A DNA stretch of 27,711 nt from Neolentinus lepideus HHB14362 ss-1 (taxonomy: Eukaryota > Basidiomycota > Agaricomycetes > Gloeophyllales > Gloeophyllaceae). The stretch's first letter is position 1; each line of letters starts with the position of its first letter. The stretch lies in the NCBI GenBank assembly GCA_001632425.1, contig KV425669.1, forward strand, positions 1 through 27,711, given 5' to 3'. Below are positions 4,368-12,279 of this stretch, piece by piece. The notes beneath the pieces are model-generated. The model was not told the DNA's origin, did no database searches, and worked only from the letters and a program-made list of their open reading frames with translations. The position numbers and the translations under genes were made by a program.

Positions 4368-5108
4368 GCTAGTGAGTTGTTAGTTATTCATTCGATATTG
4401 CTGTCGTTTTGATGCATAATTCTAGGGTGTCTCCTCCCTGCGCCCATATGGTTCTTATCGTCTCTGGCCTTTCGCACTCTTCGGACGCCTCCGTCACATT
4501 CTGGCCGACAGGCACCGGTCCACTGAATGTCCGCGCTGTCTCCCTTGCAAGTTCTTAGGTGGTAGCTTTTTCATTCCTTACACCGGACTTATTCTGGCTT
4601 AGTGTGTCTGGCGTGCTTGTGGCTGCTCTGTAGTTGATCTTACGAGCGCCTGTAGTACTTATAATTGTCTTAATTTCTTATGATCTGGACGCCTTACGGC
4701 GTATCTGAATTCGCTTAAGAACGTCTAAAGATTGCTTAATCTCAGCCTAAGACAGAACTTAAGATAAACTTTAATCAAAATTAAGTCAGAAAGTCGCTTT
4801 GTAAGACCCCAATAAGGACAACGCGAGATTCGACGAAGATGAAATAAGGCGTCACTTGGCTTAGTTTCGCTTAATTCGTCTTTTTTGTCTTAGCAAGTAA
4901 AATAAGACTAAATAAGATCGTAAGATCTCAAAAAGGCATCTCGGCATTTTGCTGATGCAGGAGCCCTCATTGTGGTTCTTCACATGGCGTCTTCTTGAGA
5001 GAAGCTCGAGCCTGGGTACGACTCCACACACCCGAAGACAGACGACTCTCCTTGTTCTCGTGTCTGCCGTCTCTCAATTTCTGGGTGGTCTTCGACTGAG
5101 GCAAGACA
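4368..5108. other. Gene-free stretch; probable right part of the mobile element plus channel promoter
   Basis: There is no open frame with coding character. It holds the presumed 3' UTR of the coiled-coil gene (about 4368-4640), a CTTA/TAAG-dense zone (about 4650-4930), and from about 4980 a pyrimidine-rich leader of the downstream channel gene. No terminal inverted repeat or target-site duplication could be fixed by eye. Confidence 0.5.
4650..4935. repeat. Cluster of short CTTAA/TAAG motifs, both orientations
   Basis: About 15 copies of CTTA or its complement TAAG occur in under 300 bases, as gcttaag, gcttaat, cctaagac, acttaaga, attaagtc, gtaagac, aataagg, gtcttag, aataagac and gtaagat. 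Chance would give two or three. Left-hand copies are mostly CTTA and right-hand ones mostly TAAG, a loose inverted arrangement. Short repeated motifs of this kind are typical subterminal transposase-binding regions, but that role is inferred. Confidence 0.6.
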
Positions 5109-8100
5109 ATGTCTATTGAATCCAGGCCGTTTTCGAAGAACTACAGGTATACTGTCGTGTGCGACTTGTCAAGTTGCCATTTAACTGATACCTCTCAGCG
5201 GTCTAGTCAATCAATCGGTCGTCGCAGTTGGTCTTGCGGTATTATGCGCGTCGGCCCACGAGTTCATGAAGAGGAAGCGGAGGGGTCACCACCGCGGGGA
5301 GGAGGGACTAGGAAGTGTAGAGTCTTGGGAGTTCGGATAGTGAGTAATCTCAAATCCAGCGGATACGTGTGGAGATACGTGGGCATGACATAGGGAACGA
5401 GCGGAGGGTTAGTTGAGAGTAATCTCGGGGACCAGGCTGGCCAAAAAGATTATTGTGGCGAATAGCAGCTGACACGATATTTCAGCTTGTATCAAGGTCG
5501 TTCGTGGGCAAGGTGTGTCTATGTCCGACATTGCGCTCTGATTATATTCTGACACCTTGCAAGGCATGCTGCTCCTCCAACTCCTCGTGGCTGGCCTCTG
5601 TCATGGGTCAAAGAGGTTTTGTCATTCCCGGACAAGAAATTAAATGAACTGAGAGGCGTCGATGCGGGTGTATACTGCCGTTGGCTGAAAGGCTGTTGTA
5701 CGTCCAAACAGTGGTTTTATGTACCAAATATTCATTTTGACGTGAATCGCGAACAGGGTGGTTTCTCCTACTGCATACGCTTACGACCTTCCCAATCCTC
5801 TTTCCGATTCATGTTGAGTTTGCACCTTCATACGTTTCACCGAAGTCCATGACCCGTGCATCGATAACGTCTCTAGTGGGCTCTGACAAGGGCAAGACGC
5901 TATTATGGATTCACATCTGCTTGTTGTTCTGGGTCACTCTAAGCTGGATGGGCACTTTGTTCTGGATCACTCGTGGCGCGTACAAGATTCGAGCCCAGAA
6001 GATACAATCTGTTGCCGACCGCGTAGCTTCCGAAGCTGAAGCGGAGAAGGACTCGCAATACTGCCCACACCCTCATCCTCAGTTTCCATTTCAGGCCTTA
6101 CCCTCCCTGGATCATGAAAACTGGAGTCGTGGTCTTCGCCTTCGTACGGTCATGGTCACCAATGTTCCGCCACAGCTGCGACTAGAGAAGGAGCTGAAAG
6201 AGTACTTTCAATATTATCTCTCACGACCTCTGGCTATGCCGTCTATGGGATTGACCTACACTACGCCTCCTGGCTTCTGGAACAAAATACTGGCGTTCTT
6301 GTTCAACCGCGCGAAGGATATTCCGGCCAAGTTACCTCTGCCAACGGCTTTCGCGAGAACAGAAACTCAAGAATTTATGACGGGTGCACCAGCCAGTGAT
6401 GCGGCTAGTCGCGTAACGTACGATCCTCCGTCTATAGACCGAGTCGTCATCGCAAGGAAGATGACAGAGCTTGCTTCGTTGCTTGGACGTCGAGAAGATG
6501 TACTTCGACGCTTGGAGACGGCCCACATAAAATTGGCGAAGAAAGCGTTGTCAGAAGTCAGGGATGCTATGGATCAAAAGGAAGCTGCTTTGACACCGAC
6601 TCAACGTTTCATGGATAAGTTTACCTCGAGTCTCCCTTCTAACGTGGATGTGGAGCGAGGACATGCTCGAGACACCTCTGTAGATGGGGAAAGTCGTATG
6701 GAGCTCCTTATCCGCACCTTAGGACCCTTCGTAGATGAATTCGGCTTGAAGCGGCAGGTCAAATGCAAGCCTGGCAAGCTGCACAAGAGTCCACCTGGGA
6801 AGAATCGCGCTGTTGAAATGGACGACCGTGGGAAGAGGGATGAGCAGACTATATGGGATGCGCTCTTGAGTCTGCCTCGAAGCACGCTCGACGCGTTCCA
6901 GCCCCTCATCCATCTCTCAGCTCTCTTCCGTGGGAAGACTGTGCCCTCCATCGACTATTATACTGCGAAGCTGGGCCTGTTGACGGCGCTCATTACGGAG
7001 AATCGGGCACGGGCGATTGCAGACTATGACCCTTGCTCGACGGCGTTCGTGACATTCACTAACCCGAACGACGCGAGGCGGGCGTGCAAATACTTGGCGG
7101 TCCACCCAGAGAATCCACTAGCCTGCCTTGTGACCATGGCTCCCAGCTATGAGGATATCGACTGGAACAGATTAATGAAATCAACGTTCAGGGTCGAGGT
7201 GATACACATTGTTCCTTTATCAAGTTTCGGTCTCATCGCCGTCTACAGTTCCTCAAGGATTGGGTTGTGGACGCCGGTGTTTGGTAAGTACTGCAGCTTA
7301 CCTGTTACATTGCCAATGTCTAAACCATCTTAGGGCGTTTACCGTTTTCTGGCTCCTTCCTGTCTCTTTCTTCGTTACTCTTGTGTCCATCCAGAACGTG
7401 CAGACGTATTGGCCGTGGCTAGTGAGTATAGAATTGTGTTTATCAACGTGCCTTATCAACGTGCCTTGCTCAACGGTGTACAGAACCGATATCTGAGCCA
7501 TCATCCATGGGAGCAAGAAGTCCTTCAGTCCTTCGTCCCGACAGTTCTCATCTCCCTCCTGACAATTAGTGTGCCCCCTATCCTCCTCTTGATCGCCAAG
7601 AAAGCTCACACGATCATCACGCTATCTGCACTTCACGATAAAATCATGACACGATATTACAAGTTTCTGATAGTCAATGTCCTCGTTTTCTTCTGTCTGG
7701 GAACTTTCGTCCTGCAGTCTTTCCTGATCAACTTCACAGAGACTGCTGGAGGCTTGATCAACACTGTCGCAGCGAGTTTTCCAGCTGCCGGTCCCTTCTA
7801 CGTTGGCTGGCGTAAGTAATTTCCGACATTAGTGAAACATACAACTTATGTCTATCAGTGATTTTCACCACCGCTATGCACGGTGGCTTAGAGTTGGCAT
7901 TGTGTGAGTATCATTTGCTCCAAACGTTTATGACTACCACTAAGCGATCCGAGTCCTTTAGTAGGCGTATGCATTTTCATTACGTGTCTATGTTGTCATC
8001 TCTGAGCATGGTCTTAGCTTCCCCTTCTCATGTACCCGAGTACGCGTCGTCAGGTAACCCCTCGTAAGCGTGCCGTCGGTATTCGCCCTCGTACTTTCAA

Positions 8101-10118
8101 CTATTATTGTAAGTGTTCCATAGGTAGCACTCGCGAATGGAGACGGTGACAGCATATTTAACACGCAGATTGGCTTCCCAATCACCTCCTCGTCGTTCAT
8201 ATTCTCGTGCTCTTTGCTGTCTTGAATCCGCTAGTTCTTCCCTTCGGGCTCTTGTACTTCAGTGTGGAAGTTGGTGCGTCCAATGCCGCTTTGTCCAACA
8301 TCGAAAATTCTCACTTTAGCTTAGCCGTCGTCAGAAATCAAGTGGGTTTCCATAGTTCCAGTTCATAAGAGTTATTTCACGGACTCAACATCCGCAGTTA
8401 ATTCATGTTTATGCTAAAAATTACGAAAGCAATGGACAGGTTATGCTCATTCGAATGATTAGGTATTCGTTAGACGGTAAGCGAAATTGGCGAAATTGGT
8501 CAAACGCAACACTAAACATCTATTTGTTTGCAACCAGGCCTAATGTTCTCTCAGGTAACTCAAGTCTTACCGCTCTCAAGATTATTCTCATCTCTTCCCT
8601 CAGGCTATTTTCTTGGCTTACATGACGGTTCTCAAGAAACACGTTAACGTAGGATTAGCCGCTTTTCTCATAGTCTTCACCGCTATTGTGAAGCTCGTGT
8701 ATGTGGAAAACTAAATTTGATCCTCGTCGCTGGTTCCTGACGTATAGCATAGTGCAACTCGTCTGGTCCGTGCCCGGTTTGAGCACGATGACGTGCTGGA
8801 GGCGAATATTCTATGTGGGACTTCGGACAGCGGCGTACTACCTGACAGCCCTTCAAGCTCATCTCTTGGCACACCGGATCTTGAAGCGCGAGGTCGAGAG
8901 CCTTCTCAAGACTCTCGTATATGGTCCTGGAAGGCCCCTATGAAATTCAACTTTTCCTACGCGACTGTCCCTAGTCGACCAAGGCAGGCCCCTCGTCATC
9001 AACCTATTCCCTTCGGCACACACCGTAGTCTGCGCCCATTCAACCGGCTACACTCATTCGATATTTCTCGGAACCGTGACGTCCAGTTGCACGAGTCAAG
9101 TCCTACTACGGCAGAGCGTGCTGCTATGTCGATGCCTACTTTGGTGAGGACCACTTCGCCACTTCCCATCGATGAAAACAAGTCGATTGTCTCAAGCCCT
9201 CCCAGCCATGCTCTTGTGACACGCCATCCTCCGCATCCGAAATGGGACGACGAGTCGAATCCTGACCACGCTTATGACAACCCCTATTACACTCAAGCCA
9301 TCCGTAACGTGCTCTGGTTGCCAAGAAATCCTGTGGGAATTCTCGACCTCGATGACACTGTTGACGTTCACAAGGCGCTCACGAGTGAGCCTGGAGCGGA
9401 TCAATTGAGTGAATGGCCGTCAGAACAGATGGCATCTGTTGCCTCCAACCTCTCCATACTGGGACTATCAACCATCGCCAGTTTCTCCAATACCGACCTG
9501 GATCGCAACTCCCTTGCGCCTTCAAGACAGCTTACGGGTGACGAAAACATCAGTTTGCGCAGAGGACTGGCTAGACGAGTGGACGCCATAGAGAAGGAGG
9601 GTGACGTCGAGGTTGCTCGACAGCCATCCTCAGTCTTCGGTAGACAAAGGACGAGGAGTGGACACCGTACTCCCTCAACCTCGAGCAGACAGGGCTCCTT
9701 AGGCTTAGGTCCCCCTCCTGTTTTCTCTGGGATGCGATCCTTTTCATCAGGATCCGGACCGAGACCAAGACCGCAAAGGCGGACCTCATCCATCTTGTCT
9801 ACAACCGACCCCAGAACTCATCCCCGCTCTCTTTCTGCAGACCAGAACGTTGATCAGCGGCCAGACTTCCATGCGCAGGCAGAATTTGCGAAGTCCATGC
9901 TGTCCATGACGTCTCCGCCGCTTCCTGAATCGAACGGGGACGAGGAGCTGCCTGGAACCTCCGCGATCTCGACACAAACAGCCGTTATGCATGAAGTTAT
10001 CAAGGAGGAGCAGGAGGCAGCTGAAGATAGGCTGGAGAGGGAACAGAAGGAGGCGAATGCCAATGCTAAGGTGGGCAGCTCGTGGTGGACTTCATGGATG
10101 TTCAGGAGAGCTCCATAA
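5109..10118 (+). CDS. CSC1/OSCA-like (DUF221) osmosensitive cation channel
   Basis: Seventeen exons: 5109-5146, 5199-5339, 5486-5512, 5564-5697, 5757-7198, 7249-7283, 7334-7421, 7484-7811, 7859-7903, 7962-7966, 8018-8108, 8169-8273, 8325-8341, 8398-8476, 8538-8554, 8604-8698 and 8753-10118. All phases agree, giving 1350 aa. The family (yeast Csc1, Phm7, Rsn1; plant OSCA) makes membrane cation channels gated by osmotic or mechanical stress. Visible in order: the N-terminal membrane domain (WEFGYLYQGRSWAR, ELRGVDAGVYCRWLKGC), a large cytosolic domain (about residues 200-590), then the multi-pass channel domain (WVVDAGVWAFTVFWLLPVSF, KKAHTIITLSALHDKIMTRY, FYVGWLIFTTAMHGG, RRQVTPRKRAVGIRPRTFNY, LIRMIRYSLDG). 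The C-terminal tail of about 450 residues is Ser/Pro-rich and probably cytosolic, with LWLPRNPVGILDLDDTVD, a motif I recall from fungal members. It is convergent with the dismutase gene. Confidence 0.9.
7441..7466 (+). repeat. 13-base perfect tandem duplication inside a channel-gene intron
   Basis: The unit tatcaacgtgcct occurs twice head to tail (7441-7453, 7454-7466) within the intron 7422-7483. It lies between donor GTGAGT and acceptor CAG and does not alter the coding sequence. It is probably a replication-slippage product. Confidence 0.85.
7962..7966 (+). other. 5-base microexon of the CSC1-like channel gene
   Basis: Exon 9 (ending 7903) is in phase 1 and the next clear exon (from 8018) must start in phase 0, so no single GT-AG intron can join them. 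A 5-base exon taggc at 7962-7966 solves it. The flanking introns 7904-7961 (GTGAGT...TTTAG, 58 bases) and 7967-8017 (GTATGC...CTTAG, 51 bases) have normal sizes and ends. The joined reading gives ELAL-LG-LPLLMYP, matching the family sequence as I remember it. Without it, translation shifts frame and stops soon after. Confidence 0.8.
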
Positions 10119-10834: not shown

Positions 10835-11905
10835 TCAGTCGGTAAGACCTGGAAGAAGATTCAATTAGTCCTGTGAATGGTGAAACAGCGTGGAGTGAAC
10901 CAAAAGGATCCTGTGCGCCCATCACAGAGTAAGACGAGGGAATAGAACACTCACCGATAACTCCACAAGCGGCGCGTCCGCCAGCGTTACCGGTCTTGAG
11001 GGATTCCTCGTTATCACCACGACCAAGGTCATCCGTGCCCTGTATGAAGAGTGTATGAGGGTAAGTCACTGCTTGACAAGACGGCATTCACTGCATACAG
11101 CATGTATAACAACAGCGCGTCCGACGACGCTCAGCGGCCCACTGAGCGAGATGAGGCTGTCCTTGATCTCAATCGAGGCGACGCCGTTCCGGTCGCTCTG
11201 GATGTTCCCGAGGTCACCTACGTGGCGCTTAGTCTTGGGATCCGTGGGCGCACCGTGCGTCACGCCGAACGGGTTGAAGTGCGGGCCTGCCGCCATGCAC
11301 GAAGATACATCGCCGAACTGACTAGACAGGTAACAAATAAATGAGCGAAGAACAGAGAAAGTAAAGCGAAAGGTGTGGCGCACTGGATGTGGAATCCGTG
11401 CTTGGCGACAGGGTCCAAGCCTTTGATCTCACCCTTTATGGCAACGGCGCCGGTCTTGGCGGATTGGGTGAAAGTAATTGTGCCCGTCACTTGTGAGTCA
11501 CCAGAGACGGTAGCGACTGCCTGGAGGAATCAGATGAATTAGTCCAGTCGAGTCAGACGACCTGATAAGATGAAGACAGAAGGATATCAGGTAGCCAGAA
11601 TAGGACGGCTTGGAAACTCCAGAGCATCCAGTCAAGACTGCTGTACCCGACGGCGGAAGCAGATCTCAGGTCATTTTCCGCCCAGACGCTTGGAAACCCC
11701 GCATAGCCCGGGCGTAAGAGGTTATGGCGGCCCACGTCGGCCCTCTGACCAGAGCCAATTACGAAGTTGACAGACGTACCTTAGTTATGATCGGGAGTGT
11801 CTCAGGTTTCAGGAATACCTGCCAGAATAAGAGGAAAGCAGCAAAGGCTGCAACGGCGGTAATGATAAGTGGCCTCTTCGACTGGGGCCCGTACGGAGAC
11901 TCCAT
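10835..11905 (-). CDS. Membrane-anchored Cu/Zn superoxide dismutase
   Basis: Five exons on the minus strand: 11905-11780, 11520-11384, 11321-11099, 11039-10955 and 10848-10835, giving 194 aa. The enzyme converts superoxide to oxygen and hydrogen peroxide. The family motifs [26 protein letters not shown] and [13 protein letters not shown] are all present. Expected copper ligands are His86, His88, His102 and His161; zinc ligands are His102, His110, His121 and Asp124; the disulfide is Cys96-Cys187; the active-site arginine is Arg184. All are kept, so it should be active. Unlike the ordinary ~154-residue cytosolic enzyme, it begins with about 42 extra residues holding one hydrophobic span (about 12-31, [16 protein letters not shown]) after a short basic stretch. 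This suggests a signal anchor, with the catalytic domain in the secretory lumen or outside the cell. The start is the ATG at 11905; the frame is open upstream but lacks an ATG. Confidence 0.9.
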
Positions 11906-12279
11906 CTTCGTTTCGGAAGTCGTTTTGGCTCGGGAGGCAGAGAGAAAGGACAATTATTTGCGCTACTTGATATTTAGGTGAGTAGGAGTAGTCTGCCGCT
12001 GCCACTAGCCATCGACCAACCTTGAGCTACCCCGCGGTTGTTGTTCTTCCAGACACTGGTTCAGTAAGAGAGCAAGCTTCGCGGTGACAATACAGCCACT
12101 GACGATTGCACCATTCACGAAGCAGATTTCAATTTGCGGCCGCACTTAGCGAAGAGTGCCGGCGGTAGCGCGCGGGATCGGCGTCGGAGCGTGGGATGCG
12201 TCGATGAACACCGGTTTCCGGTCCGTGCCTGAGCAAATGAATCCCGAAGTTCAAGAACGTTGCAGTTCAATGAAGTGGC

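What the first reader, a model, noticed from the sequence alone, without database searches (positions are those of the whole stretch)
7904..8017. 5-base microexon in the CSC1/OSCA-like channel gene
The exon ending at 7903 and the exon from 8018 cannot be joined by any GT-AG intron in phase. A 5-base exon (taggc, 7962-7966) between two normal introns of 58 and 51 bases restores the frame and yields ELALLGLPLLMYP, which fits the family. Exons this small are rare and are commonly missed by gene finders, which would report a truncated or frameshifted channel.
Basis: partly seen in the sequence, partly recalled or inferred. Interest (0 to 1): 0.75.

Follow-up and report, generated by a model that had tools for sequence, protein, structure and literature searches.

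The report
Five-base exon in fungal channel gene
A fungal membrane-channel gene very probably contains a tiny five-letter exon that must be spliced in to complete a pore helix, and database gene models of related fungi are often garbled at exactly this spot.

Summary
The gene (5109-10118, +) is a 17-exon CSC1/OSCA (DUF221) channel of a Gloeophyllales-like fungus, 85% identical to a Heliocybe and 80% to a Gloeophyllum protein; all 16 introns of the model are GT-AG. Exon 10 is taggc (7962-7966), between introns of 58 and 51 nt. Of 434 enumerated frame-keeping splicing solutions it fits a profile of 120 relatives best (2003.5 bits; next 1996.1). It supplies L and G of ELALLGLPL; 116 of 147 relatives are clean there. 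30 of 134 models without a transcript-like label are garbled at this spot; 24 of the 30 read what splice sites flush with a 5-nt exon predict, against 2 of 116 clean ones with any such sign. 13 of 13 transcript-like proteins are clean. The microexon is thus probably shared by five Agaricomycete orders, perhaps six, and often mis-annotated. Corrections: single-intron in-frame joins exist but harm the conserved helix; a 2-nt exon (7965-7966) is also in phase but fits worse. Skipping gives 16 wrong residues, then a stop. Exons this small are known (1 nt in Fusarium, 5 nt in rice), so this is a new member of a known kind. No RNA-seq or relatives' DNA was available.

The parts
5109..10118 (+). CSC1/OSCA-like (DUF221) channel gene, 17 exons, 1350 aa predicted
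7859..7903 (+). Exon 9 (45 nt), completes the W-L junction and codes LIFTTAMHGGLELAL, ends in phase 1 (..ttg t)
7904..7961 (+). Intron 9, 58 nt, GTGAGT..CTTTAG; its donor scores best of 38 GT/GC in 7859-8108
7962..7966 (+). Microexon (exon 10), TAGGC, 5 nt; completes codon tTA (L760) and supplies GGC (G761)
7965..7966 (+). Alternative 2-nt exon GC through the tandem acceptor ending 7964 (in phase, one residue shorter); disfavoured
7967..8017 (+). Intron 10, 51 nt, GTATGC..TCTTAG; if retained, an in-frame stop follows (protein of 773 aa)
8018..8108 (+). Exon 11 (91 nt), starts in phase 0: LPLLMYPSTRRQVTPRKRAVGIRPRTFNYY
8325..8341 (+). Exon 13, 17 nt (another small exon of the same gene)
8538..8554 (+). 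Exon 15, 17 nt (another small exon of the same gene)
5486..5512 (+). Exon 3, 27 nt

Best explanation
7962-7966 is a genuine 5-nt coding microexon of a CSC1/OSCA-family channel gene, needed in every transcript that makes the full channel. Two short introns (58 and 51 nt), GT-AG and probably of the ordinary U2 type, flank it. Being recognised across the intron, as is usual for short fungal introns, they can be removed one after the other, so the tiny exon need not be recognised as an exon. Because 5 is not a multiple of 3, skipping shifts the frame: 16 wrong residues, then a stop. The exon codes L-G in transmembrane helix 6, about one helical turn after the conserved pore glutamate. Shown here: sequence, phase, fit to relatives, splice-site scores, footprints in relatives' gene models. 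Inferred: actual splicing in this organism, order of intron removal, decay of skipped transcripts, and presence of the same microexon in relatives' DNA.
For: Best of 434 frame-keeping solutions by family profile, 7.4 bits above the next. Same residues as P0001 and P0002. 116 of 147 relatives have the clean motif, among them 13 of 13 transcript-like ('lgn') proteins; for 10 of these 13 the contig is only 154-857 bases longer than the coding sequence, less than the 957 bases of intron in the window's gene. 30 of the other 134 are garbled here. Of those 30, 18 read C or R straight after the leucine (xGT: a donor after the same base), 5 read V straight after [LF]G (a GT donor flush with the glycine codon), 3 have VG before LP (an AG flush with TNGG); two models show two signs, so 24 of 30 show one or more and 6 none. 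Among the 116 clean ones 0 show the first sign, 0 the second and 2 the third. Indel rate 27/134 at this junction against 63/1851 at the 14 others, Fisher p 4e-12, not corrected for shared ancestry. 25 of 20000 shuffles give such an exon. Donor 7904 ranks 1st of 38, acceptor 7961 2nd of 12.
Against: No RNA reads and no DNA of any relative could be seen, so splicing and conservation are inferred. Donor 7967 (3.19) and acceptor 8017 (2.43) score low: 2 of 14 donors and 3 of 14 acceptors of the gene's other introns are lower. Several acceptors and donors that are not used in the model score as high or higher than these two. The tandem acceptor leaves some 2-nt exon use open. The profile margin of 7.4 bits is modest by itself. 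103 of 134 models are clean, and without DNA a correctly annotated microexon cannot be told from a lost intron. 0 of 13 against 30 of 134 is p = 0.07. The best-scoring own-genome relative (C20) has no intron here.
Confidence: 0.93

Rival explanations
1. The acceptor used is 7964, so the exon is 2 nt (gc), giving ELALCLPLL; or both tandem acceptors are used and the pore helix differs by one residue between transcripts.
For: In phase, no stop, GT-AG; acceptor 7964 scores 4.23 against 4.86 for 7961. The product has the same spacing from the conserved E to P as plant ERD4, which is one residue shorter than this family (printed alignment).
Against: 9.3 bits worse than the 5-nt exon. The 116 clean relatives, 13 transcript-like ones among them, have the longer form.
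Confidence: 0.04
2. Sequencing or assembly error: one intron 7904-8017, with bases lost or changed.
For: None found; a single intron with these outer sites would need five bases that are missing at the junction.
Against: A 5-base L-G-coding unit sits between usable splice sites inside the interval. Models of 30 other relatives show trouble at the same junction, which an error in one assembly cannot cause.
Confidence: 0.01
3. A single intron with a GC donor (7897 to 8017) removes four residues (ALLG), or another one-intron join is used.
For: In frame, no stop. Two Suillus models (P0038, P0059) show a deletion of this kind.
Against: 16.9 bits or more worse; donor gcattg; loses the glycine that the clean relatives keep. 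Other Suillus models listed, such as P0003 and P0005, have the residues.
Confidence: 0.01
4. The gene is decaying and the interval is a real frameshift.
For: None beyond the odd junction.
Against: The rest of the 1350-aa frame is open over 17 exons and 85% identical to a Heliocybe protein.
Confidence: 0.01

Closest known systems
1-nt exon of CYP621A in Fusarium (PMC12940212; abstract, introduction and discussion read)
   Same: Fungal ultra-short exon inside a conserved motif, found because flanking exons do not join in phase; conserved in orthologues
   Different: 1 nt rather than 5; an ascomycete P450; confirmed there by SRA reads, here by protein comparison only
Small exons of Phanerochaete chrysosporium P450 genes (PMC1184071; passages read)
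   Same: Agaricomycete, very short exons and frequent introns of 45-55 bp
   Different: Shortest there 6 bp; P450 genes, not a channel
Xlr2 20-nt microexon of Trichoderma (PMC11121469; passages read)
   Same: Fungal microexon missed by the JGI model and sought in other species of the genus
   Different: 20 nt and switch-like with glucose; here regulation was not tested
Conserved plant microexons of 15 nt or less (PMC8831610; start of abstract in a listing, and two passages)
   Same: Often missed or misannotated; one example, a rice 5-nt exon missing from the annotation and validated by RT-PCR, has the same size
   Different: Plants; the words OSCA and ERD4 do not occur in its main text

Membership tests
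Ultra-short coding microexon (15 nt or less) | Internal exon of that size between two canonical introns | tested here: met
   5 nt, introns 58 and 51 nt, GT-AG, by sequence and phase
Ultra-short coding microexon (15 nt or less) | Needed for the conserved protein frame | tested here: met
   Best of 434 solutions; skipping gives 16 wrong residues and a stop
Ultra-short coding microexon (15 nt or less) | Present in spliced transcripts of this organism | not testable with these tools
   No reads available; 13 of 13 transcript-like proteins of relatives carry the residues
Ultra-short coding microexon (15 nt or less) | Conserved as an exon in orthologous genes | tested here: inconclusive
   Read-through signs in 24 of 30 disturbed models fit flush splice sites, 2 of 116 clean models have such a sign; relatives' DNA not available (scans found none)
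CSC1/OSCA/TMEM63 (DUF221) channels | RSN1_TM, PHM7_cyt and RSN1_7TM domains | tested here: met
   51.8, 75.6 and 145.3 bits, over the curated cut-offs, on the draft protein, which carried one wrong stretch later corrected
CSC1/OSCA/TMEM63 (DUF221) channels | Sequence relation to solved channels, with the conserved TM6 pore glutamate | tested here: met
   ERD4 8xry E 2.6e-28; E of GLELALLG printed opposite E of GLELSRI. For OSCA1.2 only the matched ranges were printed; ungapped counting puts this E at 531, the conductance residue of PMC6235563 (passages)
CSC1/OSCA/TMEM63 (DUF221) channels | Mechanically gated cation conduction | not testable with these tools
   Needs electrophysiology

The most novel reading that the evidence does not exclude
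The microexon is a regulated control point. A tandem acceptor toggles it between 5 and 2 nt, setting the length of pore helix TM6 one turn below the conserved glutamate, and skipping sends the transcript to a premature stop. The fungus would tune channel dose or gating through splicing of five bases, at a microexon kept across Agaricomycete orders.
Probability: 0.06. Interest if true: 0.7.

Novelty: new member of a known kind. Interest (0 to 1): 0.4.

Why it matters
It is a clean example of an exon smaller than gene finders usually handle, in a pore helix of a stress-channel family, with signs of being shared across five or six orders of mushroom-forming fungi. About a fifth (30 of 134) of the non-transcript-like models examined are wrong at this spot. 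It gives annotators a concrete place to test software and splicing researchers a natural substrate for how the spliceosome handles a 5-nt exon between two short introns.

Tried and rejected
My first gene model put an intron at 7279-7333 with a weak donor, which looked like a second phase problem. Comparison with P0001 and P0002 showed a missed intron 7199-7248 and a normal donor at 7284, so that was my error, not biology. DNA of relatives was sought with P0002 in viral contigs and genome contigs, one scan each, and not found. Own genome: 15 RSN1_7TM stretches on five contigs, the window's own included. On C20 a single stop-free stretch spans profile 144-208; as the window's gene leaves the profile at 146 and re-enters at 186 around the microexon, the C20 copy has no intron there. 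For the other copies tblastn did not settle the position. Single-intron, GC-donor, 2-nt and 6-30-nt exon solutions were scored and came out lower. A print record was looked for in six searches: 20 of 12,811 papers listed; 25 of 406; 16 of 16; 20 of 77; 11 of 11; 3 of 3; no listed title or abstract start names a microexon in a DUF221/OSCA gene, but the long lists were seen only in part and the papers themselves were mostly not opened. Passages of PMC8022950, PMC3990503 and PMC4014442 mention microexons only as an aligner setting. The third protein search and both structure predictions were not used, so relatives beyond the 147 were not looked at. The difference between transcript-like and other relatives (0/13 against 30/134) is by itself only p = 0.07.

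Full report
What is there. The window is contig 118 of a 33.8-Mb genome. The gene at 5109-10118 (+) is a CSC1/OSCA-like channel: its draft translation carries RSN1_TM, PHM7_cyt and RSN1_7TM over their cut-offs. The nearest database proteins are those of Heliocybe sulcata (P0001) and Gloeophyllum trabeum (P0002); Heliocybe is in Gloeophyllales. After correcting one stretch of my own draft, the model has 17 exons, 16 GT-AG introns of 47-146 nt, and 1350 aa, 85% and 80% identical to those two proteins. The assignment of the organism to Gloeophyllales is inferred from these hits.

The microexon. Exon 9 ends at 7903 in phase 1 and exon 11 starts at 8018 in phase 0. With the outer sites 7859 and 8108 fixed, I enumerated GT-AG and GC-AG joins (introns of at least 30 nt) with one or two introns. 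27 one-intron and 407 two-intron solutions keep the frame open, so 'no join in phase' is too strong. Scored with a profile of 120 relatives (garbled ones included), the 5-nt exon is first (2003.5 bits), two 13-nt variants tie for second (1996.1), the 2-nt exon has 1994.2, and the best single-intron joins are 1986.6 (GC donor) and 1981.2 (GT donor).

Chance. Some in-phase short exon is easy to find: 5309 of 20000 shuffles have one. One of 5 nt coding one of LFIMVY plus glycine is not: 25 of 20000. A matrix from the other 14 introns ranks donor 7904 first of 38 and acceptor 7961 second of 12 in 7859-8108. Donor 7967 and acceptor 8017 are weaker, though 2 of 14 donors and 3 of 14 acceptors of the other introns score lower still when left out in turn.

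Relatives. Two protein searches gave 147 relatives (120, 27 more; the calls listed 120 of 254 and 120 of 257 hits). 116 show the clean motif. P0140 has it intact but is damaged just upstream. 30 are disturbed at the microexon itself. In these 30, the residue after the leucine is C or R in 18, as expected if the model runs into a GT donor after the same base; the residue after [LF]G is V in 5, as expected from a GT donor flush with the glycine codon; and VG precedes LP in 3, as expected from an AG flush with TNGG. P0132 and P0135 show two signs; 6 show none (P0038, P0059, P0071, P0089, P0098, P0117). The same three tests on the 116 clean ones give 0, 0 and 2. Indels near this junction occur in 27 of the 134 models that lack the transcript-like label, against 1 to 8 per junction at the 14 others, 63 of 1851 cells in all. 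The species are related, so the Fisher p of 4e-12 is only a guide. Models with a read-through sign include Agaricales (Crucibulum, P0078), Boletales (Serpula, P0081), Polyporales (Fomitopsis, P0026) and Russulales (Artomyces, P0037); Atheliales (Athelia, P0098) is disturbed without a clear sign (orders; signs). With the window's Gloeophyllales this makes five orders, perhaps six. I looked up the order of only these species.

Transcript-like proteins. 12 hits carry only the source label 'lgn' and one 'jgi,lgn'; two further hits, P0002 and P0025, bear 'lgn' beside other labels and are counted among the 134. The tool does not explain the label; I take it to mean assembled public reads. For 10 of the 13 the contig exceeds the coding length by 154-857 bases, less than the 957 bases of intron in the window's gene, so they look like cDNA; the other three contigs are longer (1481-4248 bases over). 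13 of 13 are clean at the microexon; one of them has an indel at another junction (8476). Against 30 of 134 this is p = 0.07, suggestive only.

Position in the protein. ERD4, solved as 8xry, is printed with GLELSRI-IP opposite GLELALLGLP here, E opposite E. The OSCA1.2 match runs 6-150 to 465-610 of the chain, which by ungapped counting puts this E at 531; that row's alignment was not printed. E531 is the conserved pore acid whose change to A lowers single-channel conductance 1.6-fold (PMC6235563, passages). The microexon's L and G, residues 760 and 761, lie four and five residues after this E (756), about one helical turn further on. This fungal group has one residue more here than ERD4, so the 2-nt product would have the ERD4 spacing; but none of the 116 clean relatives shows it.

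How it most likely works. Short fungal introns are recognised across the intron (established knowledge, not tested here), so a 5-nt exon is no obstacle if the two introns are removed in turn. Skipping gives a frameshift, 16 wrong residues and a stop after 775 aa; retaining intron 10 gives a stop after 773 aa. Inclusion is therefore obligatory for a full channel. No regulation is shown.

Print record. Fungal exons of 1 nt (PMC12940212), 6 nt (PMC1184071) and 20 nt (PMC11121469) are in print; a 5-nt exon of rice is in PMC8831610, which reports 2,398 plant microexons of 15 nt or less, most of them unannotated. No listed title or abstract start names a microexon in a DUF221/OSCA gene; three of these listings were capped (see Tried and rejected for the numbers; too showed 20 of 77). 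The finding is well supported and tidy, a new member of a known kind. Its main value is the apparent breadth of conservation and of mis-annotation.

Noticed in passing
window 5486-5512, 8325-8341, 8538-8554: The same gene has three more small exons (27, 17 and 17 nt); relatives' models have indels at their six junctions much less often than at the 5-nt exon (4 to 8 of 127-134 per junction).
   Followed up: partly
window 7958-7966: Tandem acceptor ttTAGTAGgc in front of the microexon allows a 5-nt or a 2-nt exon, both in frame.
   Followed up: partly
window 11066-11529 (-): A Cu/Zn superoxide dismutase gene (PF00080) lies on the opposite strand downstream, perhaps with a membrane-anchor-like N-terminal exon near 11759-11953 (by eye only).
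   Followed up: partly
window 4640-4930: Stretch with many cttaag / ttaagac-like words between the upstream gene and the channel gene, perhaps a degenerate repeat; seen by eye only.
   Followed up: no
P0038 and P0059 (two Suillus proteins): Both models lack the four residues around the microexon, whereas other Suillus models listed, such as P0003 and P0005, have them.
   Followed up: no
G000 contigs C20, C21, C30, C56: RSN1_7TM matches on four further contigs of the own genome; the C20 copy has no intron at the microexon's place.
   Followed up: partly
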